A stretch of 64,000 bases of DNA, taken from Leucobacter chromiireducens subsp. chromiireducens (GTDB lineage Bacteria > Actinomycetota > Actinomycetes > Actinomycetales > Microbacteriaceae). The notes under the pieces were generated by a model. It was not told where the DNA came from, made no database searches, and saw nothing but the letters and a program-made list of their open reading frames with translations. Positions 66 through 48,923 of the stretch are shown piece by piece (the stretch's first letter is position 1; each line of letters starts with the position of its first letter). The position numbers and the translations under genes are program-made. The stretch lies in the NCBI RefSeq assembly GCF_016758255.1, contig NZ_QYAD01000006.1, forward strand, positions 1 through 64,000, in the 5' to 3' direction.

Positions 66-74
66 CCTTTTATA

Positions 75-140
75 GGGGGTCGTATTCGAGGAAGAAGCAC
101 CAGTGATGGTGACTCGTTCCACGAATACGACCCCCTTTTT
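75..140 (+). terminator. Rho-independent terminator of the rRNA operon
   Basis: Perfect 14-base arms (gggggtcgtattcg at 75-88, cgaatacgaccccc at 122-135) enclose a loop with a secondary cac-gtg type stem and are followed by a T run. It sits about 10 bases behind the 5S rRNA end, as expected for an rrn operon terminator. Confidence 0.9.
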
Positions 141-11713: not shown

Positions 11714-11764
11714 CCCCGCCGCCCACCCTTCGCCCACCCTTCGCCCCGCCTCCGCCCCCTCGGG

Positions 11765-11831
11765 ATCGGGGTCACTTGGGCAGGGTGTCGCGTTCCCCGC
11801 ATCCGCAACACCCTGCCCAAGTGACCCCGAT
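11765..11831. repeat. Long inverted repeat, family copy 1
   Basis: Perfect 24-base arms (11765-11788 and 11808-11831) with core GGTCACTTGGGCAGGGTGT, 19-base loop. It begins 52 bases past the xerD stop. No T run follows either arm. Copies 2 and 3 lie at 18991 and 29596. Could be a terminator-like 3' structure, a REP-type element or a protein site; the sequence alone does not decide. Confidence 0.9.
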
Positions 11832-11889
11832 TCGTGGGGGGAGGCGGGGTGCTCGGTTTTCGGGAGCGGGGTTGGCGTGCTACATTTTT

Positions 11890-11919
11890 GTCATTCGATC
11901 GATCGATCGATCGAATGAC
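11890..11919. promoter_or_regulatory. 30-base perfect palindrome upstream of the ABC transporter operon
   Basis: GTCATTCGAT followed by further GATC units and the mirror ATCGAATGAC make a 30-base perfect dyad at 11890-11919, 58 bases before the binding-protein start. Its central ATCG tract could cruciform. It is most simply an operator for the downstream operon, perhaps for the TetR at 16765; this link is inference. Confidence 0.6.
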
Positions 11920-11977
11920 ACGACGTTGGCCGAGCGGCCCGCGGGGGAGCGACCCCACTGACAAAGGAGTGAGTGAG

Positions 11978-12796
11978 ATGACGAAGCACGCAACCACACG
12001 AATCGGCGCGATTGCCCTCGCGCTCGCCGCAGGCGCACTGGGCCTCACCGCCTGCAGCCCGGCGGCCGGGGCGAACACCGGATCGAGCGACGGGAGCGCA
12101 GGCGCGCTCCCCACGATCGAGGCGGGCAGCTTCACCTGCTCGATGAGCGGCGAGTACCGCCCCTTCAATTACTTCGACGAGACCGGCAAGGTTGTCGGCT
12201 TCGACGTCGACATGTGCACGGCGATCGCCGATGAGCTGGGCCTGGAAGCGAAGCCCGTCACAGCTCCGTTCAACTCGCTGATCGGCGGTCTGTAGGCGGA
12301 CCGCGCCGACGCGATCATCGGCTCGCTCGCCGCGACCGAGGAGCGCAAGCAGCAGGTGCTCTTCACCGAGCCCTACTACGAGACCGGCGCCTCGCTGTTC
12401 GTTCCCGCCGACTCGACGGTCACCTCGATCGCCGACCTTGACGCTGCGAAGGTGGGTGTCACCCTCGGCACCACCTTCGAGGAGTACGCCCGCGAGCAGG
12501 CGAACATCGCCGAGGTGAAGACCTACCAGGCCGACCCCGACGCGCTGAAGGACCTCGAATCGGGCCGCATCGACGGTGTGATCACCCAGGGCTTCATCGG
12601 CAACTACCTCGCGAAGAACGCCGGCTTCAAGGTGAAGGAGGTGGGCGACGTGCTGATCCCCGACGTCGCCGCCATTGCGGTGGGCAAGAACAACCCCGAG
12701 CTGCGCGACGCGATCGACGCGGCCCTCGTCACGCTGCGCGACAACGGCACCTACGACGCGCTGAGCCAGGAATGGTTCGGGGAGAGCTTGGGCTAA
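11978..12796 (+). pseudogene. Amino-acid ABC transporter substrate-binding lipoprotein, interrupted by an amber codon
   Basis: The frame opens at ATG 11978 (aaaggag 9 bases upstream) and codes a lipoprotein signal ending in a LTACS lipobox near residue 27, then a family 3 binding domain (GSFTCSMSGEYRPFNYFDETG, GFDVDMCTAIADELG). At 12293-12295 the codon is TAG, directly after LIGGL; the same frame continues without shift (ADRADAIIGSLAATEER) to the stop at 12796. A single C to T change from CAG would explain it. Total would be 272 residues, normal for the family. Either truly broken, read through, or a base-call error. The downstream permease and ATPase genes are intact. Confidence 0.8.
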
Positions 12797-12807
12797 AGCC
12801 CCAGCTC
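12784..12807 (+). terminator. Hairpin between binding protein and permease genes
   Basis: Arms gagcttgggct (12784-12794) and agccccagctc (12797-12807) pair with one mismatch and include the stop codon. Such hairpins often lower permease expression or protect the binding-protein mRNA. No T run, so probably not a full terminator. Confidence 0.5.
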
Positions 12808-12839
12808 ACACTACGAAACGAAAGAACGAGAACACACAG

Positions 12840-13490
12840 ATGGAATTCCTCCAGTCGCTGCTGTCGAGCTGGCCGGTGTTCGTGCAGGGCCTCGGGGTCA
12901 CGCTCGCACTCACGGTGCTGACCCTGATCTTCTCGCTGATCCTCGCGGTGCTCATTACCGCGATGCGGCTCAGCGGCAAGAAACCGCTCGTCTGGTTCGC
13001 GACGGCGTACCTGGCGATCATCCGCGGCGTGCCGCTGATCGCCCTGCTCTTCGTGATCTACTTCGGCATCGTCTCGGTGGTGAAGGTCGAGGCCTTCACC
13101 GCCGCCGTCGTCGGCCTGAGCATTCACACTTCGGCATACGTCTCCGAGATCCTCCGCTCCGGCCTCGCCTCGGTGCCGAACGGCCAGGTGGAGGCAGCGC
13201 GCTCGCTCGGCATGAGCCGAATGCGCACACTGCAGAAGGTCGTTGGGCCGCAGGCGATCCGCGTCGTGGTGCCGGCCCTCGCTAACCAGGCGATCATCTC
13301 GCTGAAGGACAGCTCGGTCGCCGCATTCATCACGGTTGGCGAGCTCTTCATGACCGCGCAGCGCCTGTCCGCTGCCTCGTTCGAACCGCTGACCTACTAC
13401 AGCATCGTCAGCCTGTACTACCTCGCGATCGTGGGCCTCATGACCCTCGGTGTGAACCGCGTCGAGGCCTACTTCCGGAAGCGAGGATAA
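12840..13490 (+). CDS. Amino-acid ABC transporter permease (HisM type)
   Basis: 216 residues with about five membrane segments. The EAA loop, VEAARSLGMSRMRTLQKVVGPQA, near residues 117-140 contacts the ATPase. It is a typical polar-amino-acid transporter subunit that works as homodimer or with a second permease. Lies between the interrupted binding protein and the ATPase, 43 bases and 6 bases away respectively. Confidence 0.9.
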   Translation: MEFLQSLLSSWPVFVQGLGVTLALTVLTLIFSLILAVLITAMRLSGKKPLVWFATAYLAIIRGVPLIALLFVIYFGIVSVVKVEAFTAAVVGLSIHTSAYVSEILRSGLASVPNGQVEAARSLGMSRMRTLQKVVGPQAIRVVVPALANQAIISLKDSSVAAFITVGELFMTAQRLSAASFEPLTYYSIVSLYYLAIVGLMTLGVNRVEAYFRKRG

Positions 13491-13496
13491 CCCCGT

Positions 13497-14273
13497 ATGC
13501 ACACGACACTCCAGGCTCCCTCAGCCACCGACACCACCCCGCGGGTGCGCATTCGCGACGCGGTGAAGCGCTACGGCGACCACACCGTGCTCGACGGCGT
13601 CAACCTCGATGTCGCCTGCGGCGAGGTGACCGTGCTGATCGGCCCCTCGGGCGCCGGCAAGAGCACGCTGCTGCGCTGCATCAACGGCCTCGAGCGCCTC
13701 TCCGCGGGCTCGGTCGAGATCGACGGCGCGCACCTTGACTACCGAGAGCGCACGCTGAACTCGATGCGCCAGAACGTCGGCATGGTGTTCCAGTCGTTCA
13801 ACCTGTTTCCGCACCTGACCGTGCTGCAGAACATCACGCTCGCGCAGCAGTGCGTGGCGAAGCAGGGCCGGGACGTCGCCGAGGCCACGGCGCTGGGGCT
13901 CCTCGACCGGGTGGGTCTCGCCGCGAAGAAGGATGCCTACCCGCGCTCGCTCTCCGGCGGGCAGCAGCAGCGCGTCGCGATTGCCCGAGCGCTCGCGATG
14001 AGCCCGAAGCTGATGCTGTTCGACGAGCCGACCTCCGCGCTTGATCCCGAGCTGGTGGGTGAGGTGCTCGCGGTGATGCGCGAGCTTGCACAGGACGGCA
14101 TGACCATGGTCGCGGTGACGCACGAGATGCGATTCGCTCGGCAGGTCGCCGACACGATCGCGCTCGTCGCCGACGGGAACATTCAGGAGCAGGGACCGCC
14201 CGAGCGCGTGCTCGACGACCCCCAGTCGGACCGTGGGCGCGCCTTCCTGCGTCAGATCACGGAGGAGGGATGA
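13497..14273 (+). CDS. Amino-acid ABC transporter ATP-binding protein (GlnQ/HisP type)
   Basis: 258 residues. Walker [12 protein letters not shown] near residue 49, signature [15 protein letters not shown], Walker [13 protein letters not shown] and the switch His in VTHEMRF. The family energises uptake of polar amino acids. Ends in ATGA overlap with the enoyl-CoA hydratase gene, so uptake and the acyl-CoA genes share a transcript. Confidence 0.93.
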
Positions 14274-15124
14274 CCCCCGGCGCTGCGGGGGCGGCTGACC
14301 CCGGTCTCGATCGGGATCCCGACCCGGATCCCGGCGCGCTCTTCTCCGACGCCGCAGCGTACCCCGGGGCGAGCGAGCTCGTCACCTGCCGGATCGCGGG
14401 GGAGACTGCCCGGATCGAGCTGAACCGGCCCGAGCGGCTGAACGCAGCGTCGGCCGAGCTCATCTGGGGCCTCGCGCACGCGCTGCATCGCGTGCGCGAG
14501 GCGCGGTGCCGCGTGGTGGTGTTGAGCGGTGCCGGTCGTGCGTTTTGTGCCGGGCACGACCTCAAGGCGCCGCCCCTGCCGCGCCACTCGGAGGCCGCGT
14601 GCCGCCATCTTGATCGCCTGCAGTTCGTCAGTCGAGCGCTGCGCGATCCCGAGCTGGTGTCTGTGGCGAATGTGCACGGCTTCGCCTACGGGGCGGGCAT
14701 CGAACTGGCCCTCAGCTGCGACTTTGTTGTGGCGGAGCGCGCCACCCTGTTCCGCTTCCCGGAGGTGTCGGTTGGCCTGTCGGTGACGGGCGGGATATCG
14801 TTCTACCTTCCGCAGGCAATCGGAATGCCGCGGGCAAAGGAGCTCATCATGCTGGGGGAACCGTTCGACGCGCAGACGGCACACACGCTCGGCATGATTA
14901 CGCGCGTGGTCGATGGCGACGCGCGGCATGAGCTGAGCGCGCGCATCACCGGGCGGCTGCTCGAGCTGCCGCACGAGGCGCTCGCGCTCGCGAAAGGCAC
15001 GATCGAGCGCGTGTTTGCTGACGTCGCCGCGCGCGCGATGGCGCTGGAGATCGAGAATGGGCTCGACACCGGCGGTGCCGCGGACGCGGAGGCAGCCCGA
15101 GCGCGGTTCAGCGGGCGCGCGTGA
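14270..15124 (+). CDS. Enoyl-CoA hydratase/isomerase family protein
   Basis: 284 residues with a Asp/Pro-rich 35-residue N-terminal extension. Crotonase fold motifs: CAGHDLK oxyanion-hole segment near residue 100 and HGFAYGAGIELALSCDFVVA near residue 135, where the second oxyanion Gly lies. Members hydrate or isomerise enoyl-CoA thioesters; some act on carnitine-type or aromatic CoA esters. Start overlaps the ATPase stop; its end overlaps the ligase start by 4 bases (GTGA). The substrate is unknown. Confidence 0.85.
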   Translation: MTPGAAGAADPGLDRDPDPDPGALFSDAAAYPGASELVTCRIAGETARIELNRPERLNAASAELIWGLAHALHRVREARCRVVVLSGAGRAFCAGHDLKAPPLPRHSEAACRHLDRLQFVSRALRDPELVSVANVHGFAYGAGIELALSCDFVVAERATLFRFPEVSVGLSVTGGISFYLPQAIGMPRAKELIMLGEPFDAQTAHTLGMITRVVDGDARHELSARITGRLLELPHEALALAKGTIERVFADVAARAMALEIENGLDTGGAADAEAARARFSGRA

Positions 15125-16758
15125 GCACCGCGCAGCTCCCGGCGCTCGCCACGCGGGTGGTGGAGGATCTCGCACAGCCCCCGCGTTTCGCCCGCGTGCC
15201 GCTCGATGAGGCTACTGACATCGGTGGCCTCATCGAGCGCGCCGCGCGCCTGTGGCCGGACCGCGTGGCCTGGCGGTTTGACCCGGGCGGCGATGCGCTG
15301 ACGTTTGCCGAGGTGGAGACCCGCACGCGCGCCCTCGCCGCCGCGCTCGCCGCAGACGGGATCGGGGCCGGCGATCGGGTGGCGCTGCTCGCCCCGAACA
15401 CCGCCGCGTTTCCGCTGTGCTGGCTCGCGCTCGCCCGGCTCGGCGCCACGACCGTGCCGGTGAATGTGCGCTATCGCCGGCGCGACCTCGCGCACGTGCT
15501 GCGCGCGAGCGCACCGAAACTGTTGCTTGCTGACCCGAGCGCGCTCACCACCGCGCACGCCGCGGCCGAGTACGCGGAGAGCCACGTGCGCGTGGTGGCG
15601 CTCGATGCGTACCTCGCCGCCGCAGCCGCGCAGTCAGGGCGCGAGCCCACGCTCGAGCTGCCGGCCGCACCCGGCCCCGACGCGGTCGCGAACATTCAAT
15701 TCACCTCGGGCACCACTGGGCCGCCGAAGGGCTGCGTGCTGAGCCACCGCTATTGGCTTGCCCTTGCCTGGACGTTGATGCGAGAGGCGCCCGGCATCTC
15801 CGGATCGGATGTGCTGTTCACCGCGCAACCAATGTCGTACATCGACCCGCAGTGGAACGTGATTGTTGCGCTCGCGGCCGGCGCGGAGCTCGTCGTGGCC
15901 GACGGGTTCCACCCCACGACCTTCTGGCAGCGGGTGCGGCACTACGGCGTCACCTACTTCTACTGCCTCGGCCTCATGCCCGTGCTGCTCGAGCGCATGC
16001 CCGCCAGCCCACTTGACCGCGAGCATCGCGTGCGGCTCATCCAGGCCTCAGCGATTCCGCCCGCGCTGCACCGCACCCTCGAGGAGCGGTGGGGCGTGCC
16101 GTGGCTGGAGGCGTTCGGTATGACCGAAACCGGGTCTGACCTGTTCATGCCCGAAATCGAGGGCTCCCGCTTCGCCGCGAGCGCATGGATCGGCGTGCCC
16201 CGCGCGCACCGCGAGGCCGCCGTCGTCACCCCCGAGGGCGCGGTCGCCCGTGCGGGGGAACCCGGCGAACTGTGGATCCGGGGGGACGGCCTGTTCCTCG
16301 GGTACCTCGGGGAGGAGGATCGGAGCGGTGCTCCTGACACCTGGTTCCGCACGGGCGACATCGTGCAGCACGACGGCGCCGGCCGCATCGCGTACGTGGG
16401 GCGCACGAAAGACATGATTCGCCGGGCGGGTGAGAACGTCGCCGCGGTTGAGGTCGAGAGCGTCATCACCGCGCACCCGGCGGTGCAGGTGTCCGCCGTC
16501 ACGGGACTGCCCGACGAACTGCGCGGTGAAGAGGTCGCGTGCTTCGTGCTGCGCGAGCCCGGCGACCCCCGCGACGACGACACGCTCTTCCGCGATCTTG
16601 TTGAATACTGCGCCGCGGAGCTCGCGAGCTTCAAGATTCCCCGATACTGGAAGTCGGTAACAAAGCTCCCGCGGACGGCTTCCGAACGCGTGGCGAAGCA
16701 CAGGCTCGCAGAGTCGCTCGATCGATCGAGCTTCTGGGACCTGCGAGGCGAGAGGTAA
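15121..16758 (+). CDS. AMP-binding acyl-CoA ligase
   Basis: 545 residues from GTG. Adenylate-forming motifs: FTSGTTGPPKGC (P-loop-like, near residue 197), AFGMTETGSDLF (A5) near residue 328, FRTGDIV (A7), GRTKDMIRRAGENV (A8) and a C-terminal SERVAKHRLA segment where the usual A10 lysine sits. The body resembles crotonobetaine/carnitine-CoA ligase (CaiC-like) more than long-chain fatty acid ligases, but that is a judgement by eye. It probably activates the acid imported or processed by this operon. Confidence 0.85.
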   Translation: MSTAQLPALATRVVEDLAQPPRFARVPLDEATDIGGLIERAARLWPDRVAWRFDPGGDALTFAEVETRTRALAAALAADGIGAGDRVALLAPNTAAFPLCWLALARLGATTVPVNVRYRRRDLAHVLRASAPKLLLADPSALTTAHAAAEYAESHVRVVALDAYLAAAAAQSGREPTLELPAAPGPDAVANIQFTSGTTGPPKGCVLSHRYWLALAWTLMREAPGISGSDVLFTAQPMSYIDPQWNVIVALAAGAELVVADGFHPTTFWQRVRHYGVTYFYCLGLMPVLLERMPASPLDREHRVRLIQASAIPPALHRTLEERWGVPWLEAFGMTETGSDLFMPEIEGSRFAASAWIGVPRAHREAAVVTPEGAVARAGEPGELWIRGDGLFLGYLGEEDRSGAPDTWFRTGDIVQHDGAGRIAYVGRTKDMIRRAGENVAAVEVESVITAHPAVQVSAVTGLPDELRGEEVACFVLREPGDPRDDDTLFRDLVEYCAAELASFKIPRYWKSVTKLPRTASERVAKHRLAESLDRSSFWDLRGER

Positions 16759-16764
16759 CCCGAG

Positions 16765-17532
16765 ATGACCAGCACTGCCATGAATGAATTGCAGGAACTC
16801 GCCGTCCCAGCCCTGCCGACGGGCACGCATCTGCGTGTGCTTGAGGCCGCACTTCACCTGTTCGCGCGCAACGGCTACAACGCCACCGGCATTCGCGAGA
16901 TCGCCACGCACAGTGGGCTCACCTCCTCGACTCTGTACCACTACGCGGGCACGAAGGATCAGCTGCTCGCCCAGATTCTCAGCGACTCGCTGGAACGCTA
17001 CACGATCGCCTCCGAGTTCTTGAACGAGCACTGCGACGACCCGGCAGAGCTGCTTGCGCACCTCGTCTGGCTGCACGTCGTGACACACGCGATTCAGCGC
17101 GACTCGGCGCTCGTGGGCGACACCGAGATCGACAACCTCGGGCCGGCAGATCGCGAGCGCGTGGTGGCCCAGCGAGACCACTACGAACGGATCTGGCAGG
17201 ATGCGATTCGCCGGGGCGTCGCGAGCGGCAGCTTCACGGTGCGAGACGAGCGGATTGTGCGCCTCGCGCTCTTGGAGACCTGCACGAGCGTGTCGCACTG
17301 GTTCTCGCGCGACGGCGAGCTCTCGGCGGCCGAGGTGGCCGACCGCTTCATCGACATTGCGTTCGCCATGCTGCGCCACGAGGCGAACGCAACCGAGATC
17401 CCCACGGGCGAGGATCATCTCGCGGGCGCGCTGGTGAGCCGCGTGTGGGGCATCAGCGCCGACGAGTACACGGGTCGGGCGGCGCCCGCCGGTACGACCA
17501 CAACACACCCTGACGCGACCTCCGCACACTGA
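16765..17532 (+). CDS. TetR family transcriptional regulator
   Basis: 255 residues. N-terminal helix-turn-helix at about residues 40-70 (GIREIATHSGLTSSTLYHYAGTKDQLL). The C-terminal ligand domain is helical with an unstructured Thr-rich tail. It lies 6 bases after the ligase and before the SDR gene, so it probably controls this operon in response to an acyl-CoA or the substrate. The palindrome at 11890 is a candidate operator. Confidence 0.9.
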   Translation: MTSTAMNELQELAVPALPTGTHLRVLEAALHLFARNGYNATGIREIATHSGLTSSTLYHYAGTKDQLLAQILSDSLERYTIASEFLNEHCDDPAELLAHLVWLHVVTHAIQRDSALVGDTEIDNLGPADRERVVAQRDHYERIWQDAIRRGVASGSFTVRDERIVRLALLETCTSVSHWFSRDGELSAAEVADRFIDIAFAMLRHEANATEIPTGEDHLAGALVSRVWGISADEYTGRAAPAGTTTTHPDATSAH

Positions 17533-17559
17533 CGCGACACCCAACGACGGGAGCTCCTC

Positions 17560-18405
17560 ATGACACCTTCGACAGACTCCGCTGCAGGCCCCACCACCTC
17601 GGGCTCCACGACCTCGAGCCCTGCAACTCCGGCGGCGGCCGTCGCTGGCCCGGCTCCTGGCCGCTGCGCGCTCGTGACGGGCGGCGGGCGCGGGATCGGC
17701 CGCGCCACCGCCCGCGAGCTCGCCGCCCGCGGCTGGGCGGTGGCGCTCTTCGACCTCGACGCGGCGGCGCTCGCCGAGACCGCCGAGCTGATCCGTGACG
17801 CCGGCGGCACCGCGGCGGGCTACACAGTGGACGTGTCCGACGAGGCGAGTGTCGCCGAGGGCGTCGCAGCCGCGGCGGCGGAGCTCGGCGCCCCGCTCGT
17901 GCTCGTCAACAACGCGGGCGTGCTGCGCGATGACTTCCTGTTCCGGGCCACGCTCGACGACTGGGACCTCATCATGAACGTGCACCTGCGCGGCGCGTTC
18001 CTGATGAGCCGCGCCGTGCAGCGCTTCATGGTGGAGGCTGGCTGGGGGCGCATCGTCAACCTGTCGAGCACGTCCGCGCTCGGCAACGCCGGCCAGAGCA
18101 ACTACTCCGCGGCAAAGGCCGGGGTGCAGGGACTCACGAAGACGCTCGCGCTCGAACTTGGCAAGTTCGGCATCACCGCGAACGCCGTGGCCCCGGGCTT
18201 CATCGCGACCGACATGACGCGCGCGACGGCTGAGCGGCAGGGCATCACGTTCGAGGAGCTCGCCGAGCGGGTGTCCGCCGCAACCGCCGTGCGCCGCATG
18301 GGCGACCCCGCGGATATCGCCAACGCGGTGGCGTTCTTCGTGGCAAACGAGAGCAGCTTCGTGTCGGGCCAGGTGCTGTACGTCTCCGGCGGCCCGAGTG
18401 TGTAG
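17560..18405 (+). CDS. SDR oxidoreductase, 3-oxoacyl-ACP/CoA reductase type (FabG-like)
   Basis: 281 residues; a Ser/Thr/Ala-rich stretch of about 35 precedes the Rossmann fold. NADP-binding TGGGRGIGRATA near residue 41, NNAG motif, and the catalytic Ser/Tyr/Lys in STSALGN and YSAAKAG. The family reduces 3-oxoacyl thioesters or oxidises the hydroxy form. Followed by a MaoC hydratase overlapping by 8 bases, which supports action on 3-hydroxyacyl/enoyl-CoA. Confidence 0.88.
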   Translation: MTPSTDSAAGPTTSGSTTSSPATPAAAVAGPAPGRCALVTGGGRGIGRATARELAARGWAVALFDLDAAALAETAELIRDAGGTAAGYTVDVSDEASVAEGVAAAAAELGAPLVLVNNAGVLRDDFLFRATLDDWDLIMNVHLRGAFLMSRAVQRFMVEAGWGRIVNLSSTSALGNAGQSNYSAAKAGVQGLTKTLALELGKFGITANAVAPGFIATDMTRATAERQGITFEELAERVSAATAVRRMGDPADIANAVAFFVANESSFVSGQVLYVSGGPSV

Positions 18406-18934
18406 TGCGCAGGCGGCTCCGGATCCCACGCGAAATCTCAGTTCCACGCAAGAAACTGCGCGGGATCCGGGCCGCGCGCCGCTCGTGCTGCACGGCCTCG
18501 CCGGGGTGCGCGCGGCTGCCGGCGCAGAGCTCGGCCCCACAACGTGGTTCGAGGTCACGCAGGAGCGCGTGGACGATTTCGCCAGGGTCACTGAGGACTG
18601 GCAGCCCATCCACTGCGATCCGGAGCTCGCTGCAGCAAGCATGTTTGGCGGCACGATTGCGCACGGCTACCTGACGGTCGCGCTGCTCAGCCGTTTTGCG
18701 CGTGAGCTGTACCGCATCGAGGGCACCCGCACGGTGGTGAACTACGGGCTCGACCGGGTGCGCTTTCCCGCGCCGCTCCGCGTGGGTGGCCGCGTGCGTG
18801 CGCGTGCGCGAGTGGGGGAAGCGACGGCGCGCGGTGCCCTGCTCGACGTGCCCGTCACGTACACGCTCGAGGCGGAGGGGGAGGCGCGCCCCGTGCTCGT
18901 GGCGGAGACCCGCATCCTTGTCGACGCCCCGTAG
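18398..18934 (+). CDS. MaoC-like (R)-specific enoyl-CoA hydratase
   Basis: 178 residues from a GTG inside the SDR 3' end. Hot-dog fold with the hydratase motif DWQPIHCDPELA near residue 67 (Asp and His are the catalytic pair), then MFGGTIAHGYLT. It hydrates trans-2-enoyl thioesters to the (R)-3-hydroxy form, partner of the preceding SDR. The first 45 residues are low complexity. It ends the operon, with repeat copy 2 beginning 56 bases later. Confidence 0.88.
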   Translation: MCSAQAAPDPTRNLSSTQETARDPGRAPLVLHGLAGVRAAAGAELGPTTWFEVTQERVDDFARVTEDWQPIHCDPELAAASMFGGTIAHGYLTVALLSRFARELYRIEGTRTVVNYGLDRVRFPAPLRVGGRVRARARVGEATARGALLDVPVTYTLEAEGEARPVLVAETRILVDAP

Positions 18935-18990
18935 CTCCGCCCCGCGCTCCGTCCCGCGCTCCGTCCCCGCGCCCCCGCCTCCCCAGCGGA

Positions 18991-19054
18991 TCGGGGTCAC
19001 TTGGGCAGGGTGTCGCTCCGCCCGCCCGCGCGACACCCTGCCCAAGTGACCCGA
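18991..19054. repeat. Long inverted repeat, family copy 2
   Basis: Arms at 18991-19015 and 19031-19054 (core GGTCACTTGGGCAGGGTGTCG), perfect except one extra G in the left arm; 15-base loop. It starts 56 bases past the MaoC stop and 73 bases before parA. Same family as 11765 and 29596. Confidence 0.9.
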
Positions 19055-19127
19055 AACCGGGGGAGGGGTGGGGTCGCGGTGCACGATAGGATGGAGCGTT
19101 AGCGAGGCAGGCGAAAGGAGTCCGGGA

Positions 19128-19982
19128 ATGGCGAAGCAACAGGTCGAGCTCGGTCCAACCGGCCGACCAGAGCGTGTCATCCCGGCACCCCAGAAGCTGG
19201 ACCGCCACGGCCCCGCGCGCATCATCGCGATGTGCAACCAGAAGGGCGGCGTCGGCAAGACGACGAGCACCATCAACCTGGCTGCGGCGCTCGCGCGCTA
19301 TGGCCGCCGCGTGCTGGCCGTCGATTTCGACCCGCAGGGGGCGCTCTCCGCGGGCCTGGGCGTGCCCGCGCATGACGTCGTGACGATCTACGACCTGATG
19401 CTTGGCAAGGAGAGGGATCCGCACACCGCGATCCAGCAGACCGCCACGCCCGGCCTCGACGTGATCCCCGCGAACATCGACCTGTCGGCGGCAGAGGTGC
19501 ACCTCGTCACCGAGGTTGCCCGCGAGCAGATCCTCGGCGGCGTGCTCCGCAAGGTGGCCGACGACTACGACGTGATCCTCGTCGACTGCCAGCCGTCCCT
19601 CGGCCTGCTCACCGTGAACGCGCTCACCGCAAGCCACGGCGTGCTCATCCCGCTCGCGTGCGAGTACTTCGCGCTGCGCGGCGTCGCGCTGCTCGTCGAG
19701 ACGATCGACAAGGTGAAGGATCGCCTGAACCCGGCCCTCGAGCTCGACGGCATCCTCGCAACGATGTACGACTCGCGCACGCTGCACGCACGGGAGGTGC
19801 TCGAGCGCGTCGTCGACACCTTCGGTGACAAGGTGTTTGACACCGTGATCGGCCGTACCGTGAAGCTGCCCGACGCGCAGATCGCCGCGCAGCCCATCCT
19901 CGACTACGCGCCCTCGAACGCCGCATCCGAGGCGTATCTGAAGCTCGCTCGCGAGCTCGTGCAGCGGGGCGTGGTCGCCTAA
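19128..19982 (+). CDS. ParA family ATPase (Soj-like)
   Basis: 284 residues from ATG 19128, with aaaggag 8 bases upstream. Deviant Walker A CNQKGGVGKTTSTINLAAAL near residue 40, Walker A' DFDPQGALS and Walker B VILVDCQPSLGLLTVNAL. The family moves chromosomes or cargo in the cell. Sitting directly in front of scpA and scpB it is the second ParA commonly found there in actinobacteria, distinct from the one beside oriC. A TAGGAT box at 19086 may be its promoter. Confidence 0.9.
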   Translation: MAKQQVELGPTGRPERVIPAPQKLDRHGPARIIAMCNQKGGVGKTTSTINLAAALARYGRRVLAVDFDPQGALSAGLGVPAHDVVTIYDLMLGKERDPHTAIQQTATPGLDVIPANIDLSAAEVHLVTEVAREQILGGVLRKVADDYDVILVDCQPSLGLLTVNALTASHGVLIPLACEYFALRGVALLVETIDKVKDRLNPALELDGILATMYDSRTLHAREVLERVVDTFGDKVFDTVIGRTVKLPDAQIAAQPILDYAPSNAASEAYLKLARELVQRGVVA

Positions 19983-19990
19983 CCACGATC

Positions 19991-20842: not shown

Positions 20843-21458
20843 GCCAGACGCACAGCCCGGAAGCGCCGCGGAAGAGCTGGCCGCTGCCCGCGCCGACCAC
20901 ACGCTCGCGCAGCAGCTCGAGGCACTCCTCATCGTCGCCGACGAGCCGCTCAGCGCGGTCTCGCTCGCCGCCGCGACCGAGAAGCCCGTGCGCGAGGTGC
21001 GCGAGGCCGTCATCGCGCTCGCCGCGGAGTACGATGGGAGGGATGGGGCTCCCGGATCCCACGCCCGCGGTTTTGAACTGCGCGAGGTGGGGGGCGGGTA
21101 CCGCTTCTACGTGCGTGCGAGCCTTGACCCGCTCGTGGCCGACTTCGTGCACCAGCAGACTCCGTCGAAGCTGTCGCAGGCGGCCCTCGAAACGCTCGCC
21201 GTGATCGCATATCGGCAGCCGATTGCGCGCGGCGCGATCGCGTCGATCCGTGCGGTGAACGTGGATTCCGTGGTGCGCACGCTGCTTGCGCGCGGACTCA
21301 TCACCGAGGTGGGGCACGACCCGGAGACCACCGCAACGCTGTACGGGACATCCGAGTCACTGCTCGGTTATCTCGGTATCGGAGACATTTCGGAGCTGCC
21401 GCCTATCGCGCCGCTGCTCGACGATCCAATGGAAGGTTTTACACATGAAGAACTCTGA
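20835..21458 (+). CDS. scpB: Segregation and condensation protein ScpB
   Basis: 207 residues from the ATG at 20835, nested in the scpA end. Tandem winged helices: LEALLIVADEPLS near residue 27 and SQAALETLAVIAYRQPIARGAI near residue 115. A Gly/Asp-rich insertion (AEYDGRDGAPGSHARG) separates two strands of the first domain. Subunit of the SMC-ScpAB condensin. It overlaps the pseudouridine synthase gene by 14 bases. Confidence 0.95.
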   Translation: MTEPDAQPGSAAEELAAARADHTLAQQLEALLIVADEPLSAVSLAAATEKPVREVREAVIALAAEYDGRDGAPGSHARGFELREVGGGYRFYVRASLDPLVADFVHQQTPSKLSQAALETLAVIAYRQPIARGAIASIRAVNVDSVVRTLLARGLITEVGHDPETTATLYGTSESLLGYLGIGDISELPPIAPLLDDPMEGFTHEEL

Positions 21459-23220: not shown

Positions 23221-24338
23221 GTGGCAACGGCACCCGCAACGGGCTCTACGGTGCGCAGCCCGCGGCGCGCACTCGTGGACCCGTGCACGTGATCGGTTCG
23301 GGGCTGCTCGGTGCGAGCGTCGGCCTCGGCCTGCGCGAGCGCGGCGTTGACGTGACCCTCGAGGACCTCTCGCCCACTACCGTTGCGCTCGCCGCAGACT
23401 ACGGTGCGGGCCGGGTGCGCGCGGCAGACGACGCCGAACCCACCATCGTGGTCGTCGCGACCCCGCCCGATGTGACCGCCGACGCGGTCGAGCGGGCCCT
23501 CGCCACCTACCCGAACGCCGTGGTGACCGACGTGGCAAGCGTGAAGCTGGCCCCGCTCGAGGAACTGCAGCGCCGCGGCGTCGACCTCACGAACTACGTT
23601 GGCTCGCACCCGATGGCAGGCCGCGAGCGCGGCGGCGCGATCATGGCGCGTGCCGACCTGTTCACCGCCCGCCCGTGGGTGATCTGCCGCGACGCGGAGA
23701 CCCCGGCCGAGGCGCTCGCGCACGTGGAAGACGTGGCGCTCGACCTCGGCGGCGTGCTGATCGAGATGACCCCCGAGGAACACGACCGCTCGGTGGGACT
23801 CGTCTCGCACCTCCCGCAGGTGGTATCGAGCCTGCTCGCCGCGCGTCTCGTGCCGGCAACCGAGCAGGCCATCGGCCTTGCGGGGGCGGGGCTGCGCGAC
23901 ACCACGCGGATTGCCGCGAGCGATCCCGAGCTGTGGATCCAGATTCTTGGCGCGAACCGCGAGCCCGTCACCGAGTTGCTCGACGCGCTTGCCGGCGACA
24001 TCGCCGACTTTGCTGACGCCCTCCGGGATCCCGAGCGAGTCGGCACGAAGCGGCGCATCGCCGATCTGCTGTCGGCGGGCAATGCGGGTGTGGCGCGCAT
24101 TCCCGGCAAGCACGGCTCCTCCGAGCGCTTCACCACGATCACGGTGCTCATCGACGATACGCCGGGCCAGCTGGCGCGACTGCTCACCGAACTCGGAGAA
24201 CTGGGCATTAACATGGAAGACTTGCGTCTGGAGCACTCGCCGGGCGCGCAGATTGGTTTTGCGGAGATCGCGGTGCTGCCCGAGGTGGCTGAGCGCGCGG
24301 TTGCCGACCTCGTTGAACGCGGATGGAGGACGCTGTGA
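23217..24338 (+). CDS. tyrA: Prephenate dehydrogenase
   Basis: 373 residues. NAD-binding GSGLLGASVGLGLRERG near residue 23, the conserved GSHPMAGRE segment near 127, and a C-terminal ACT domain (TVLIDDTPGQLARLLTELGELG, about 305-370) for tyrosine feedback. It oxidises prephenate to 4-hydroxyphenylpyruvate. Its stop overlaps the cmk ATG by one base. Confidence 0.93.
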   Translation: MSGNGTRNGLYGAQPAARTRGPVHVIGSGLLGASVGLGLRERGVDVTLEDLSPTTVALAADYGAGRVRAADDAEPTIVVVATPPDVTADAVERALATYPNAVVTDVASVKLAPLEELQRRGVDLTNYVGSHPMAGRERGGAIMARADLFTARPWVICRDAETPAEALAHVEDVALDLGGVLIEMTPEEHDRSVGLVSHLPQVVSSLLAARLVPATEQAIGLAGAGLRDTTRIAASDPELWIQILGANREPVTELLDALAGDIADFADALRDPERVGTKRRIADLLSAGNAGVARIPGKHGSSERFTTITVLIDDTPGQLARLLTELGELGINMEDLRLEHSPGAQIGFAEIAVLPEVAERAVADLVERGWRTL

Positions 24339-25090
24339 TGAATGCTGAGCACGAGCCGGGCGCACCCGCACCCATCCTCGTTGCAATCGATGGGCCCGCG
24401 GGCAGCGGAAAGTCGAGCGTGTCACGCACCGCCGCCGAGGCTCTCGGCTTCGGCATCCTTGACACCGGCGCTGCCTACCGTGCACTCGCGTGGACGGCGC
24501 AGCGCATCGGCCTTGACCTCGATGATGCTGCCGCGATGGAGGTGCTGCTCGACAACTGGGTGTACCGCATCACGCTGCGCGGCACGCAGCAGGTGACGGT
24601 CGCCGTACCCGGTGGGGTGGGGGCTGCCGTGCCCGAGCTCGCCGAGGGGGTCGACGTGACCGCCGCGATTCGCGAGCACTCCGTCAGCGGCCAGGTGAGC
24701 CGCGTCTCGAAGCACCCCGCGGTGCGCGAGCGGCTCAACGAGATGTTCCGCCGCACGGTCGCCGAGTCGGGCCTGCCCGGCGTGGTGATCGAGGGCCGCG
24801 ACATCACGACCGTGGTGGCGCCCGACGCGCCGGTGCGGATCCTCCTCACCGCGTCGCCGGAGGTGCGCGCCCAGCGGCGCGCGGGGGAGCTGCCCGGGCT
24901 CACGCCCGAGCAGGTGCTCGCCGATCTCACTGCGCGCGACGCAAAGGACGCCCTCGTGGTGGACTTCATCAACCCCGCACCCGGGGTGACGCTCGTCGAC
25001 ACGAGCGACCTGAACTTCGAGCAGTCGGTGCAGGCTGTCGTCGACATCGTACGAGCGGCGCAGGGCGCTGCGGAAGAGAGCAAGAAATGA
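24338..25090 (+). CDS. cmk: Cytidylate kinase
   Basis: 250 residues. P-loop [14 protein letters not shown] near residue 15, [12 protein letters not shown], the [23 protein letters not shown] core and the C-terminal [10 protein letters not shown] strand. It phosphorylates CMP/dCMP. The ATG at 24338 follows a GTG and overlaps the tyrA stop; the end overlaps der by 4 bases (ATGA). Conserved cmk-der order. Confidence 0.95.
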
Positions 25091-26652
25091 GCACGGAACA
25101 GAACGGCGCACCAGGCGCCGCCGAGAACGAGACGGAGGTGTTCGACGTCTCGACCGTTGACTCCTCCGAGGTGATCGTGGGCGAGGGCTTCGACCCCGAG
25201 CTCGACGGGGTGACCGACGAGGAGCGCCTGCGCGCCATGCGCTCGAACCTCGACGGCTTCGACCTCGAAGACGACGACATGGTGCTCGTCAACGAGGACG
25301 GCGAGTTCCTCGGCTTCGCCGAGCCCGCCGCCGAGGCGCTGCCCGTCGTCGCGATCGTGGGCCGCCCGAACGTGGGCAAGTCCGCACTCGTCAACCGCAT
25401 CCTGGGCCGCCGCGAGGCCGTCGTCGAGGACCTCCCCGGCGTCACCCGCGACCGCGTGAGCTACCCCGCCGAGTGGACGGGCAAGCGCTTCACGCTCGTC
25501 GATACGGGCGGGTGGGAGCCCGACGCGAAGGGCCTCGACGCCTCCGTCGCGCTGCAGGCCGAGGTGGCCATCGAGCTGTGCGACGCCGTCATGTTCGTCG
25601 TCGACTCGCGCGTGGGCCCCACCGCAACCGACGAGCGCGTCGTGCAGCTGTTGCGCCGCACCAACAAGCCCGTCTTCCTTGTCGCGAACAAGGTGGACGA
25701 CATGGTGCAGGAGCCCGAGGCAGCCCAGCTGTGGTCACTCGGCCTCGGCGAGCCGCACGCGGTGTCGGCCCTCCACGGTCGCGGCGTCGCCGACCTGCTC
25801 GACAAGGTCATCGCTTCGCTGCCCGACGAGTCTGCCGTGGCGCAGCCGAAGCTCGCCGGCCCCCGCCGCGTCGCGCTGCTCGGCCGCCCGAACGTGGGCA
25901 AGTCGAGCCTCCTGAACAAGGCTGCGGGCGAAGAGCGCGCCGTCGTGTCTGACATCGCCGGCACCACGCGTGATCCCGTGGACGAGCAGGTCGAGCTTGC
26001 GGGCCGCGTGTGGACCTTCGTCGACACGGCAGGCATCCGCCGCCGAGTGCACCTGCAGAAGGGCGCCGACTTCTACGCGACGCTCCGCACCGCCGCCGCG
26101 CTCGAAAAGGCCGAGGTGGCCGTCGTGCTCATCGACGTCACGCAGGAGATCAGCGACCAGGATCTGCGCATCATCGACCTCGTTCTCGAGTCGGGCCGCG
26201 CGCTCGTGCTGGCCTTCAACAAGTGGGACATGCTCGACGACGACCGCCGCCGCTACCTGGAGCGCGAGATCGAGCAGGATCTCAGCCACGTCGACTGGGC
26301 ACCCCGAGTCAACATTTCCGCGCGCACGGGCCGCCACCTCGAGAAGCTCGTCCCCGCTCTGGAGACCGCGCTCGAGTCGTGGGACACCCGTATTCCCACG
26401 GCGAAGTTCAACGCGTTCATCGCGGAGCTGGTGCAGGAGCACCCGCACCCGCTGCGCGGCGGCAAGCAGCCGAAGATCCTGTTCGGCACGCAGGTGCAGA
26501 ACCGGCCGCCCACGTTCGTGCTCTTCACCTCGGGCTTCCTGGATCCCGGCTACCGCCGCTTCATCCAGCGCCGCCTGCGCGAGACGTACAACTTCGAGGG
26601 CAGCCCCATCGTGCTGAACATGCGCATCCGCGAGAAGCGTCAGCGCGTGTAA
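25087..26652 (+). CDS. der: Ribosome biogenesis GTPase Der
   Basis: 521 residues. An acidic N-terminal extension of about 80 residues, common in actinobacteria, precedes two tandem GTPase domains: [15 protein letters not shown] (near 92) and [13 protein letters not shown] (near 266), each with DxxG and NKxD motifs (VANKVDD; AFNKWDM). The C-terminal KH-like domain ends in [10 protein letters not shown]. It acts in 50S assembly. Operon end: a terminator follows. Confidence 0.96.
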
Positions 26653-26691
26653 CGACGCCGGGTTCTTGCCTCGCGCAAGGAATTCAGCGAA

Positions 26692-26731
26692 CCGCAGCGC
26701 CCCTCCCACGGGAGGGGCGCTGCGGCGTTTT
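26692..26731 (+). terminator. Rho-independent terminator after der
   Basis: 15-base arms ccgcagcgcccctcc (26692-26706) and ggaggggcgctgcgg (26711-26725), loop cacg, then cgttttc. Confidence 0.85.
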
Positions 26732-26782
26732 CGGGGACTGCCACGGCCGCGATCCCGCGCGAAAATCCCAGCCGCGCTGCCC

Positions 26783-26788
26783 TACGCT
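26783..26788 (+). promoter_or_regulatory. -10 element of a candidate leaderless promoter
   Basis: TACGCT 6 bases before the ATG at 26795, with no room for a ribosome site. Confidence 0.45.
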
Positions 26789-26794
26789 AAACGG

Positions 26795-27745
26795 ATGCAC
26801 GAAGAATCCGGCGCCGAACGCGGCCTGACACCGCTTGAGCGGGCCATCGATCGGGCGGCGAACCGGCTGCTCGAGGGGGCACCCGCGCGCGGGGCCCGGG
26901 CCGTGCTCGTCGAGTGCGCGGTGTTCGTGATGAAGCAGGCGTGGGCGTGCGTGTTCGGTGCGCTGCTGCTCGCCGTCATCGTCGCGGCACGGCTCTGGTA
27001 CCCGGACGACGCCGCGCTGGCGCGCAACGACGCCCTCACGATCGCGGCGATCCTCATCCAGATCGGCATGCTCGTGTTCAAGCTCGAGACCGGGCGCGAG
27101 CTGTGGGTGATCATCCTCTTCCACATCACGGGCACGGTGATGGAGCTCTTCAAAACCGATGTGGGGTCGTGGTCGTACGAAGCCGCGGGCGTGCTGCACA
27201 TTGGCGCCGTGCCGCTCTTCAGCGGTTTCATGTACGCGGCCGTCGGCTCCTACATGGTGCGCGTGTACCGGCTGCACCGGCTGCGCTTCACCAACTATCC
27301 GCGGGTGTGGCTCACCACGATCGTTGCGGCCGCGATCTACGTGAACTTCTTTTCGCACCACTTCATCGTCGATTTGCGGTGGGTGCTGCTCGTCGCCGTG
27401 GTGGTGCTCTGGTGGCGCACGACCATGCACTTCCGCGTGTACCGGGTGACGCTGCGCGCGCCCCTCCTGCTCGTGTTCTTCGGCGTTGCCGTGTTCATCT
27501 GGTTGGCTGAGAATATCGCGACGTGGGGTGGGGCGTGGCTGTACCCGCATCAGGAGGGCGGCTGGGAGCTCGTCTCGCCGCAGAAGCTGATCGCCTGGTT
27601 CCTGCTTATGATCATCTCGGTCGTCATGGTCACGTGGGTGTACCCGCCGCGCGACGTGGATCCCGCTCCCGATGGCGAAGCTGATCCGGATCCGGACATC
27701 GAGCCCGAGCGAGACGCTGCGCCGAGCCCGGGTCCCGCGGCGTGA
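26795..27745 (+). CDS. DUF817 family integral membrane protein
   Basis: 316 residues with eight or so hydrophobic segments (first near 55-75). Conserved family segments ELWVIILFHITGTVMELFKT and YVNFFSHHFIVDLRW carry polar and His residues inside membrane stretches. C-terminal tail is Asp/Pro-rich. No function is established for the family. Translation likely starts from a leaderless transcript. GTGA overlap with the next membrane gene suggests a pair. Confidence 0.85.
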   Translation: MHEESGAERGLTPLERAIDRAANRLLEGAPARGARAVLVECAVFVMKQAWACVFGALLLAVIVAARLWYPDDAALARNDALTIAAILIQIGMLVFKLETGRELWVIILFHITGTVMELFKTDVGSWSYEAAGVLHIGAVPLFSGFMYAAVGSYMVRVYRLHRLRFTNYPRVWLTTIVAAAIYVNFFSHHFIVDLRWVLLVAVVVLWWRTTMHFRVYRVTLRAPLLLVFFGVAVFIWLAENIATWGGAWLYPHQEGGWELVSPQKLIAWFLLMIISVVMVTWVYPPRDVDPAPDGEADPDPDIEPERDAAPSPGPAA

Positions 27746-28869
27746 GGCGGGTGTTCAGCTCGGCCGGTGGCTGGGCGCTGATCACGGGTGCGGTCGCGGT
27801 GCTGTGGGCGCTGCTTGGTGACGGGACCGCGTTCGGGCCGATGGTCTTCGCGCTCGTCGCCGGGTTCTTCCTCGGCTACGTGGTGCTCGGTGCGTTTCGC
27901 CGAGGCCTGTCTGCGCGGGCGGATCTTCTGCTGCACATCCTCCTCGCGGCGCTGCTCGGCCTCGTGGGAATGTTCATCGTGCCGCGCTTGGCGGAGATCA
28001 TGCCCTGGCTGCGCAGCTGGGCGCCGCAGCCGGTGCTTGCACTCGTGCCCGTTGTCGGTATGGTCGTGGTGAGCTTCACCGCTGTGGTGTGGTTGTTGCT
28101 CCTCTCGCGGGCGGTGGCGGCGATTCCGAACCGCGACCCGCGGGATCGCCCGGCGCCCGAGTGGGAGGTCCGCACCTCGTCAGGCACCGAAGCGTGGGTC
28201 ACCGCGGTGCCCATGACGCGCCGCGCGTACGGCTGGGTGGTCGCGCTGGTCGGTGTGCTGATCGGGCTCGCGCTGTGGGCGGTGTTCGCGCTGGGGTCGC
28301 CGAAGATCTGGTGGTGGCCGCCGAAGCTCGTGTTGCTGGCGCTCGGGATCGGGATCGCGCTGCCGATCGTGCTCGCCGCCCGCGCAGCCCTGCGCGCACG
28401 CACGCGCCAGTGCCGTGTGGAGTTTGCGGGCTCCCGCGTGACGCTGTGGGTCGCGGCGCGACCGGGCGCGTGGCGCGGAGAAGAGTTCGCCAGTGCCAGT
28501 GCCAGTGCCAGTGCCAGTTCCAGTGCCAATGCTGACGCCAGCGCCAACACGGTGGAGCGCACTTCGTTCGCGTTTCGTGAACTTGATGAGTTCGTCTGGT
28601 GTGCAACGGGCGACGGTGCCCGACTCGAACTTCGTTCGGGGGAGCGTCACACTTCGTTGCTCGTGGGTATCGCGCGGCCGCGACCCGGACTGAGCGCGGC
28701 GCTGCCCCCGCTCTCGCGCCGGGTACGGGCGGAGCTCGCCGAAGCAGGGCTCGCGGAGGTCTCGCCTCGCACACCGGGCCGCGCTCGCGTCCAGCCAACG
28801 CCGGCCCGACCTCACCCCGTGCTGCGCTTTATCCGAGACGCCGCGCCAGCAGCCTCCGCACACGTCTGA
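27742..28869 (+). CDS. Membrane protein of unknown function
   Basis: 375 residues, GTG start overlapping DUF817. Four hydrophobic segments in residues 5-130 and two around 165-215, then a soluble half containing a Ser/Ala tract (residues 250-268) coded by a six-base repeat (gccagt, five perfect copies at 28489-28518). A His/Arg-containing beta-rich domain follows. No family recognised. The terminator-like hairpin behind it closes the two-gene unit. Confidence 0.7.
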   Translation: MRRVFSSAGGWALITGAVAVLWALLGDGTAFGPMVFALVAGFFLGYVVLGAFRRGLSARADLLLHILLAALLGLVGMFIVPRLAEIMPWLRSWAPQPVLALVPVVGMVVVSFTAVVWLLLLSRAVAAIPNRDPRDRPAPEWEVRTSSGTEAWVTAVPMTRRAYGWVVALVGVLIGLALWAVFALGSPKIWWWPPKLVLLALGIGIALPIVLAARAALRARTRQCRVEFAGSRVTLWVAARPGAWRGEEFASASASASASSSANADASANTVERTSFAFRELDEFVWCATGDGARLELRSGERHTSLLVGIARPRPGLSAALPPLSRRVRAELAEAGLAEVSPRTPGRARVQPTPARPHPVLRFIRDAAPAASAHV

Positions 28870-28895
28870 GGCCCCCGGGAAATCCCGGGGGCCTC
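28868..28895. terminator. Hairpin after the membrane protein pair
   Basis: Arms gaggcccccggga (28868-28880) and tcccgggggcctc (28883-28895), two-base loop. It overlaps the stop codon end. No T run on either strand; it separates convergent genes. Confidence 0.6.
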
Positions 28896-28941
28896 ACACT
28901 CGCTGCCCGCTGAGCTGCATGCTGTGCGGGCGAGGCTCAGG

Positions 28942-29418
28942 CTAGAGCCACGCGAACGGCAGGGCGAGGAGCCCGGCGCCGAGCGCGACCGCACCGATCA
29001 GAATGCCGATCGCGGTGAACGCCAGCATGATGCTGTTCAGCCACACACCCCAGAGCGCCAGCGTGCGCTCGGTGGTGCCGCGACGCAGCGCGAGGATGCT
29101 GAGGATGAGGCCGGCGATGGGAGCGATGAACGTCCAGCTGCTCACGATCGAGGCGATACCGAGCACGAAGCCGACGATCGCGAAGACGCGGCTGTTCTCG
29201 CTCGGGGCAGCGGGGACCGGCTGCGGACCCTGCGCGGGAGTGCCCTGCGAGCCGTCAAAGCCGTACTGTCCGTACTGCGCGCCCGCCTCCCACTGTGCGC
29301 CGGGGGTGCCCTGTGGTGCCTGGCTGGGAACCTGCTCGCCCTGCATAGCGAAGGCCTGGGCGGAGGCAGCATCGTTTGTGATGGGAGCGGTGCCGGGGAG
29401 GATCGCGGTGGTGTTCAT
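28942..29418 (-). CDS. DUF4190-like small membrane protein
   Basis: 158 residues from ATG 29418 with aaggag 5 bases upstream. Residues 1-75 are Gln/Gly/Pro/Ala-rich and likely cytoplasmic; two hydrophobic segments pairs follow (FAIVGFVLGIASIVSSW and LNSIMLAFTAIGILIGAVALGAG). This layout matches DUF4190 proteins with a disordered Q/G/P-rich head. Function unknown. The longer open frame upstream has no ribosome site. Confidence 0.75.
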   Translation of the reverse strand: MNTTAILPGTAPITNDAASAQAFAMQGEQVPSQAPQGTPGAQWEAGAQYGQYGFDGSQGTPAQGPQPVPAAPSENSRVFAIVGFVLGIASIVSSWTFIAPIAGLILSILALRRGTTERTLALWGVWLNSIMLAFTAIGILIGAVALGAGLLALPFAWL

Positions 29419-29595
29419 GGTGCTCTCCTTTCGAGCGTCGGCGGGTGATTCTGGTGTCGGCCCGTCCTGATGCTTCAAAGGTATGCCGGCACCCGGGTGC
29501 GGCGCGTCCTCCCGCGGTGCCGAGCGCCTCATACCCCGGTACTGCCCTGCCTGCCTTGCCCCTCAGGGTTCCCCTGACCCGCTCGCCCCAACGGT

Positions 29596-29660
29596 TCGGG
29601 GTCACTTCGGCAGGGTGTCGCGCGGTGCAGCGAGACGACACCCTGCCGAAGTGACCCCGA
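29596..29660. repeat. Long inverted repeat, family copy 3
   Basis: Perfect 25-base arms (29596-29620 and 29636-29660), core GGTCACTTCGGCAGGGTGTCG, 15-base loop. Compared with copies 1 and 2 one G is C in the left arm and the partner in the right arm changed to match. It starts 35 bases past the stop of the MFS gene on the minus strand. Confidence 0.9.
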
Positions 29661-29694
29661 TTCGCCGGGAGGCGGGGGGAGGCGGGGGATGCGG

Positions 29695-32153: not shown

Positions 32154-32201
32154 CACCCGGTGATGTACTTCTGTACATGTACTTTTGTACATTACCGGGT
32201 G
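32154..32201. promoter_or_regulatory. Operator dyad between tetR and rraA
   Basis: Outer arms cacccggtgatgtac (32154-32168) and gtacattaccgggtg (32187-32201) pair with one mismatch; inside lies a second dyad, gtacatgtac at 32173-32182, so TGTAC occurs four ways. Typical of TetR-family operators with two dimers bound; it covers the divergent promoter region. Confidence 0.65.
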
Positions 32202-48849: not shown

Positions 48850-48923
48850 CGGGATGTGGCGCAGCTTGGTAGCGCACCTGACTGGGGGTCAGGGGGTCGC
48901 AGGTTCAAATCCTGTCATCCCGA
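48850..48923 (+). tRNA. tRNA-Pro (anticodon GGG)
   Basis: Acceptor arms cgggatg/catcccg, D arm gcgcagcttggtagcgc, anticodon arm cctga-ctggggg-tcagg with GGG at positions 34-36, T arm gcagg-ttcaaat-cctgt, discriminator A. CCA is not encoded. Its 3' end is the attachment site side: an integrase gene lies directly downstream. Confidence 0.95.

What the first reader, a model, noticed from the sequence alone, without database searches (positions are those of the whole stretch)
11765..29660. Family of three long inverted repeats with a compensated base change
Arms of 24-25 bases at 11765-11831, 18991-19054 and 29596-29660 share TCGGGGTCACTTNGGCAGGGTGTCG. The one variable position is G in copies 1 and 2 and C in copy 3, and the opposite arm changes to keep pairing. 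Loops (15-19 bases) differ wholly. Each begins 33-60 bases past a stop codon (XerD, MaoC, MFS) and none has a T run. Selection therefore acts on pairing, as RNA or DNA hairpin, or on a dyad-binding protein. I know no named element of this sequence.
Basis: partly seen in the sequence, partly recalled or inferred. Interest (0 to 1): 0.75.

Follow-up and report, generated by a model that had tools for sequence, protein, structure and literature searches.

The report
Helically spaced palindromes at gene ends
Some thirty long DNA palindromes sit mostly just past gene ends in this Leucobacter genome; relatives carry the same pair of outer half-sites, about 47 or 57 base pairs end to end (one helical turn of difference), which points to an unknown protein that reads the double-stranded DNA.

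Summary
The three dyads are real and belong to a family: 33 copies in this Leucobacter genome. Wider census: 215 elements from 16 genomes (12 Leucobacter, 4 of one genus in another family of the order), plus 12 sites in a further Leucobacter. The outer half-sites CGGGGTCACTT...AAGTGACCCCG are 46-48 or 57-58 bp end to end, nothing between: one helical turn. Sites beside the same genes differ by that step between lineages. The centre drifts in sequence but keeps its length in 23 of 25 ortholog pairs; spacers to the neighbouring stop codon do so in 0 of 23. Sense-strand mismatches show no G.U bias, and inner variable positions do not covary, so RNA pairing is probably not what is kept. Elements lie mostly at gene 3' ends, enriched between convergent genes; no Y1 transposase was found in 14 Leucobacter genomes. 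Best reading: REP-like double-strand binding sites for an unidentified protein, perhaps a gene-end boundary. Terminus avoidance holds in four genomes and fails in a fifth. Protein and function are unproved.

The parts
11764..11832 (.). copy 1, whole palindrome (57 bp from half-site end to half-site end as counted from GGTCACTT, 15-nt centre), 3' of the XerD-type gene
   Evidence: RNA fold of 11757-11839 -67.1 kcal/mol, z -10.6
11767..11777 (+). copy 1 left half-site CGGGGTCACTT
11819..11829 (-). copy 1 right half-site (AAGTGACCCCG on +)
18989..19057 (.). copy 2, whole palindrome (right outer end imperfect), between the MaoC-domain gene and a ParA-family gene
18992..19002 (+). copy 2 left half-site
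19044..19054 (-). copy 2 right half-site (AAGTGACCCGA on +, one base off)
29594..29662 (.). copy 3, whole palindrome, 3' of the MFS gene (minus strand)
29597..29607 (+). copy 3 left half-site
29649..29659 (-). copy 3 right half-site
10598..11713 (+). neighbour: tyrosine recombinase (Phage_integrase, XerD type)
18398..18934 (+). neighbour: MaoC-domain protein
29695..31242 (-). neighbour: MFS transporter

Best explanation
A repetitive extragenic palindrome family that works as double-stranded DNA. Two half-sites, CGGGGTCACTT and its inverse, lie in one helical phase, about 47 or 57 bp end to end, and are read by an unidentified dimeric or tetrameric DNA-binding protein whose preference has drifted together with its sites in each lineage. 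Placed mostly just past stop codons, and enriched between convergent genes, the protein-DNA complex most likely acts as a boundary: a roadblock or topology-handling site that keeps opposing transcription apart. Shown: the family, the half-sites, the length steps, conservation in place between two species, gene-end placement. Inferred: that a protein binds, and that it acts as a boundary. I give about 0.65 to double-strand recognition and about 0.35 to the boundary role.
For: End-to-end lengths of 215 elements from 16 genomes: 46 (3), 47 (69), 48 (32), 57 (71), 58 (40), none elsewhere although 38-71 bp or 36-74 bp was allowed (total); 12 more sites of G004 all 47. Both classes coexist in G015 and G060. 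In G029 the inner GTGTCG sits in either of two registers while the total stays 47 in 15 of 15. Sites beside the same genes are 57 in G000 and 47-48 in G015, G076 or G029: three pairs with both flanking genes alike, one with one flank. In 25 G000/G001 ortholog pairs the total length is equal in 23, while 0 of 23 spacers of 1-200 bp to the neighbouring stop codon are equal; the centres are 47% identical against 36% shuffled in those 23 pairs. The half-site is shared with a genus of another family whose inner arm differs. Convergent placement 70 of 172 against 16 of 99 element-free gaps, p = 2e-5; 17 of 25 classified in the other genus, none divergent.
Against: No protein was identified. Arms covary at positions 6, 8-10 and 12, which plain double-strand binding does not predict. 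Stems are very stable as RNA. In the other genus 19 of 50 strands have at least 4 T in the 9 nt after the arm, so terminator action is possible there. 22 of 172 Leucobacter sites lie between divergent gene calls, some perhaps calling errors. A founder effect within lineages could contribute to uniform lengths.
Confidence: 0.5

Rival explanations
1. RNA hairpin at transcript 3' ends: a bidirectional intrinsic terminator or mRNA 3'-end stabiliser.
For: Gene-3'-end placement with convergent enrichment; very stable folds, z -6.7 to -10.6 for the three window copies; T-enriched tails in the other genus, 0.38-0.42 T.
Against: In Leucobacter only 16 of 378 strands have at least 4 T in 9 nt after the arm; no G.U preference on the sense strand, 41 against 50; length steps and sequence-conserved half-sites are not needed for terminators; inner stem positions do not covary.
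Confidence: 0.2
2. A chromosome-domain mark: sites for a nucleoid-occlusion or chromosome-organising protein, kept out of the terminus.
For: In G015, G032, G016 and G034 only 7 of 46 sites fall in the half nearest the dif-like site, p = 1.8e-6; all 33 G000 sites lie on three contigs making up 61% of the genome, P = 9e-8, and the contig with the dif-like site (C4) has none. Published Noc and SlmA sites are underrepresented near the terminus (PMC4726725, passages).
Against: In G004, 6 of 9 loci fall in the dif-proximal half; G029 has a site about 166 kb from its dif-like site. The bias could follow core-gene density, which I did not test. Noc sites are 14-bp palindromes, far shorter.
Confidence: 0.15
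3. Non-autonomous mobile palindromes moved in trans by an unknown transposase; the helical steps reflect synapsis of the two ends.
For: One recent copy: C1:326448 and C1:340772 share about 70 bp including an identical 15-nt loop, with unrelated flanks; few sites are shared between distant clades.
Against: 25 of 33 sites are held at orthologous places in G001 with arms far more conserved than centres; no Y1 transposase in 14 of 14 Leucobacter genomes searched (other transposase families not searched); no evident target duplication by eye.
Confidence: 0.15

Closest known systems
REP / BIME elements (repetitive extragenic palindromes)
   Same: Short palindromes in many copies, intergenic, mostly at tandem and convergent gene ends (PMC3733652, passages); REPs bind gyrase, IHF and Pol I (PMC1525189, passages).
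   Different: No GTAG or CGTC tag in the lineage consensus sequences, no Y1 transposase in 14 genomes, strict end-to-end length in helical steps, lineage-specific arms.
Noc (NBS) and SlmA (SBS) sites
   Same: Tens of palindromic sites per chromosome; terminus-poor in several genomes here.
   Different: Far longer dyads with a free centre; terminus bias absent in G004.
Paired uptake sequences as terminators (USS/DUS)
   Same: Sequence-conserved inverted pairs at gene ends (PMC5217627, passages).
   Different: In G000 the arms occur only in pairs at fixed spacing, not singly.
Spaced palindromic motif pairs of unknown role between convergent genes
   Same: Computational finds such as GCTTAT(N)5AAGCG in A. 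ebreus (PMC5217627, passages).
   Different: Other sequences and taxa; no helical length steps in the passages seen.

Membership tests
REP element (GTAG/CGTC type) | terminal GTAG or CGTC tetranucleotide | tested here: not met
   16 lineage consensus strings, -9 to +20, show neither at the outer end.
REP element (GTAG/CGTC type) | RAYT (Y1_Tnp) transposase in the genome | tested here: not met
   0 of 14 Leucobacter genomes; the other genus was not searched; CGTC REPs are said to lack one.
REP element (GTAG/CGTC type) | many intergenic palindromic copies at tandem and convergent gene ends | tested here: met
   150 of 172 classified Leucobacter sites.
Intrinsic terminator | hairpin followed by a T run | tested here: not met
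   Leucobacter 16 of 378 strands; but the other genus 19 of 50.
Uptake-sequence pair | arms also frequent as single copies | tested here: not met
   63 arm matches in G000, all within dyads.
Nucleoid-occlusion binding sites | underrepresented near the terminus | tested here: inconclusive
   7 of 46 in four genomes, but 6 of 9 in G004.
Nucleoid-occlusion binding sites | bound by a division-inhibiting DNA-binding protein | not testable with these tools
   No protein identified.
Known Rfam RNA | match to a family at gathering score | tested here: not met
   Only a tRNA at 48850-48923 in the window.

The most novel reading that the evidence does not exclude
A chromosome-wide set of double-stranded DNA landmarks in at least two families of one actinobacterial order, each two half-sites locked to one helical phase (47 or 57 bp) around a free centre, read by an undiscovered protein that coevolves with all its sites at once and insulates gene ends or organises the chromosome.
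Probability: 0.35. Interest if true: 0.85.

Novelty: new variant of a known kind. Interest (0 to 1): 0.62.

Why it matters
If true, a class of gene-end palindromes, easily taken for terminators or mobile junk, would be binding sites for an unknown architectural or boundary protein. The length steps give a test that needs no prior knowledge of the protein: a 5-bp change should break it, a 10-bp change should not.

Tried and rejected
RNA hairpin selection: tested by sense-strand wobble counts and not supported as the main force. RAYT-driven REPs: not supported. Phage origin: 74 viral stretches matched the loose pattern, but the 21 printed with at least 13 of 18 arm pairs are spread over 42-69 bp and carry other arms, so I read them as chance. 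Plasmids: no match for copy 1. Intrinsic terminators: T-tract hairpins are rare at Leucobacter gene ends altogether, 2 of 71 and 5 of 93 with an element, 7 of 83 and 3 of 100 without. A hit in another genus of the family (G188) is a single site without the arms and looks like chance. Integron attC sites, WhiA and RacA: considered from recall only, not tested. Hairpin-templated copying of one arm onto the other would explain the covariation and the recent duplicate (two paired changes, unchanged loop), but not why positions 14, 15 and 20 escape it; left open.

Rows dropped or limits: L173 (a lone 3-mismatch arm hit) was dropped from the own-genome set; L157 duplicates an element of L156. For G001 (38 forward and 39 reverse arm hits, list cut short) I fetched 28 stretches and extracted 34 elements. 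The 215-element table leaves out G004 and G012 and holds only what I fetched from each genome. Of 10 G004 loci, one gave no element under the rule used, and one locus also gave a weaker overlapping 68-bp pairing. In the context test 17 of 189 elements (inside or unclear) were left out. My gene calls are home-made (codon log-odds); some divergent or inside calls are probably wrong. Spacer control: an earlier hand-typed version (0 of 31) left out 7 of 25 pairs and skipped spacers of zero or less, two of which were equal; the computed version is: 27 stop-side spacers, 1 equal (a gene call overlapping the element in both species), 0 of 23 among those of 1-200 bp; start-side spacers 1 of 14 equal (0 and 0). 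In the dif test neighbouring copies were merged by hand, one G032 site (3062774) is an arm hit not checked as a dyad, the contig order of G015 is assumed, and the lengths of G016 and G034 are rounded.

Full report
Observation. The three inverted repeats are as described. Their neighbours are a tyrosine recombinase of XerD type, a MaoC-domain protein and an MFS transporter. Between 23-nt arms the centre is exactly 15 nt. The own genome (G000, 3.22 Mb, 6 contigs) holds 31 forward and 32 reverse arm matches with up to 3 mismatches and none for the reversed control. With diverged partners included there are 33 dyads, 32 with a 15-nt centre and one with 16.

Relatives. With a length-neutral pattern (GGTCACTT, 24-54 free bases, AAGTGACC) 14 of 54 Leucobacter genomes have matches; the reversed control matches in one of the 54. 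In the order, 5 of 396 genomes match a slightly longer pattern: the own genome and four genomes of one genus (g6) in another family; five other genomes of that genus have none, and the reversed control matches in one genome of 396. In g6 the arm is GCAACGCGGGGTCACTTAYGGCCCAT: outer half-site shared, inner arm different. G004 carries a variant half-site, mostly GGTCGCT. Absence elsewhere may therefore partly be divergence of the half-site.

Length steps. I extracted 189 elements from 12 Leucobacter genomes and 26 from g6. End-to-end lengths, counted from GGTCACTT to AAGTGACC, are 46 (3), 47 (69), 48 (32), 57 (71) and 58 (40), with none between or beyond although 38-71 or 36-74 bp was allowed. 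Twelve sites of G004 are all 47. Most lineages keep one class (G000 and G001 57, G076 and G029 47, G032 48), while G015, G060 and G022 carry both, and G063 has one 58 with another half-site beside ten 48. In G029 the inner GTGTCG sits in either of two registers within an arm, yet the total stays 47. Sites beside the same genes are 57 in G000 and 47-48 elsewhere: L160 and G015 L203, L119 and G076 L262, L155 and G029 L294 (both flanking genes alike), L109 and G015 L210 (one flank). Other class-crossing pairs come mostly from loci with two neighbouring copies or one shared flank and I do not count them. A step of one helical turn is what two half-sites in one phase of duplex DNA require; neither an RNA hairpin nor a free loop predicts it. 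A founder effect could make lengths uniform within a lineage, but hardly the empty gap between 48 and 57 across lineages with free centres.

Conservation in place. 25 of 33 G000 sites have a matching site in G001, with mostly 75-92% identity of the long flanking alignments. In 23 pairs with equal 15-nt centres these are 47% identical against 36% when shuffled, so they have drifted nearly freely. Total length is equal in 23 of 25 pairs; of 23 spacers of 1-200 bp between element and neighbouring stop codon none kept its length. Length and arms are held while the centre's letters are not.

Covariation. In G000, position 9 matches in 27 of 33 elements against 12.6 expected, and positions 6 and 8 also exceed all 500 shuffles. 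G001 shows it at 8 and 9, G015 with G060 at 9 and 10, G076 at 9, 10 and 12, G063 at 10 (6 of 500 shuffles reach it), g6 at 10 and more weakly 11. G032 (11 elements) shows none. Positions 14, 15 and 20 and outer -7 to -5 vary without clear matching; outer -2 matches more than expected in G076 (5 of 500) and G015 with G060 (13 of 500). At orthologous sites there are 16 matched changes and 30 single-arm changes. One recent duplicate (C1:326448 and C1:340772) has an unchanged loop yet two matched changes in both arms, which looks more like copying between arms than slow compensation. I leave the restriction to positions 6-12 unexplained.

RNA or DNA. On the coding strand of tandem sites, mismatches are G.T 41 and A.C 50. 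Selection on RNA pairing should favour G.U. T runs after the arm occur on 16 of 378 strands in Leucobacter but 19 of 50 in g6, so a terminator role is not excluded there.

Place. Leucobacter sites: 70 convergent, 80 tandem, 22 divergent, 9 inside and 8 unclear by my gene calls; element-free gaps of 80-500 bp in the same loci: 16, 58 and 25 (Fisher p = 2e-5 for convergent, 0.012 for fewer divergent). In g6: 17 convergent, 8 tandem, 0 divergent, 1 unclear, often 6-25 bp from the neighbouring stop codon. In G015, G032, G016 and G034, 7 of 46 sites fall in the half nearest the dif-like site (sites by pattern). G000's contig with the dif-like site has none. But in G004 6 of 9 loci are dif-proximal. 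Terminus avoidance is thus not general, and I keep the chromosome-mark reading as a rival.

Comparison with what is known. The passages seen of PMC3733652 and PMC1525189 describe REPs with a GTAG or CGTC tag, RAYTs for the GTAG kind, placement between tandem and convergent genes, and gyrase, IHF and Pol I as binders. The present family lies like REPs but fails the tag and transposase tests, so I call it a REP-like variant, not a member. PMC4726725 (passages) gives the terminus gap of Noc and SlmA sites. PMC5217627 (passages) lists unexplained spaced palindromes between convergent genes in other taxa. Searches for the sequence or for palindromic repeats in Leucobacter, Microbacteriaceae and the order found nothing on point in the listings shown; that covers open-licence papers only, and longer lists were seen in part.

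Verdict. A real, widespread family, not seen in those listings, whose strict helical spacing makes a duplex-binding protein the likeliest reader. Its function is a hypothesis.

Noticed in passing
window 11889-11920: A perfect 32-bp palindrome TGTCATTCGATCGATCGATCGATCGAATGACA about 60 bp past copy 1, in front of a solute-binding-protein gene; perhaps an operator.
   Followed up: no
window 32154-32201: Imperfect palindrome of GTACATGTAC-like repeats (29-nt arms, 83%).
   Followed up: no
window 74-136: Inverted repeat of 20 nt, 95% complementary, 23 nt apart (AGGGGGTCGTATTCGAGGAA).
   Followed up: no
window 19128-19982: ParA-family ATPase gene directly downstream of copy 2.
   Followed up: partly
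flanks of G000/G001 elements, e.g. window 11740-11763 and 11833-11860: Flanks are C-rich on the left and G-rich on the right (0.54-0.60) in tandem, convergent and divergent contexts alike; pairing beyond position -8 (0.34-0.60) is about what I reckon from that composition.
   Followed up: partly
G000:C1:326448 and C1:340772 (L121, L123): A recent near-exact copy of one 70-bp palindrome 14 kb away, flanks unrelated, arms changed at two matched positions.
   Followed up: partly
13 Leucobacter genomes, e.g. G000:C4:96956: A single dif-like site GATAATCTATATTATGTCAG, exact or with one change, in 13 of 13 genomes searched.
   Followed up: partly
other-genus elements, e.g. L406, L415: The centre itself often holds a small CCC...GGG inverted repeat, and position 10 is T in most listed G749 copies but C in most G799 and G634 copies, as if changed in concert.
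   Followed up: no
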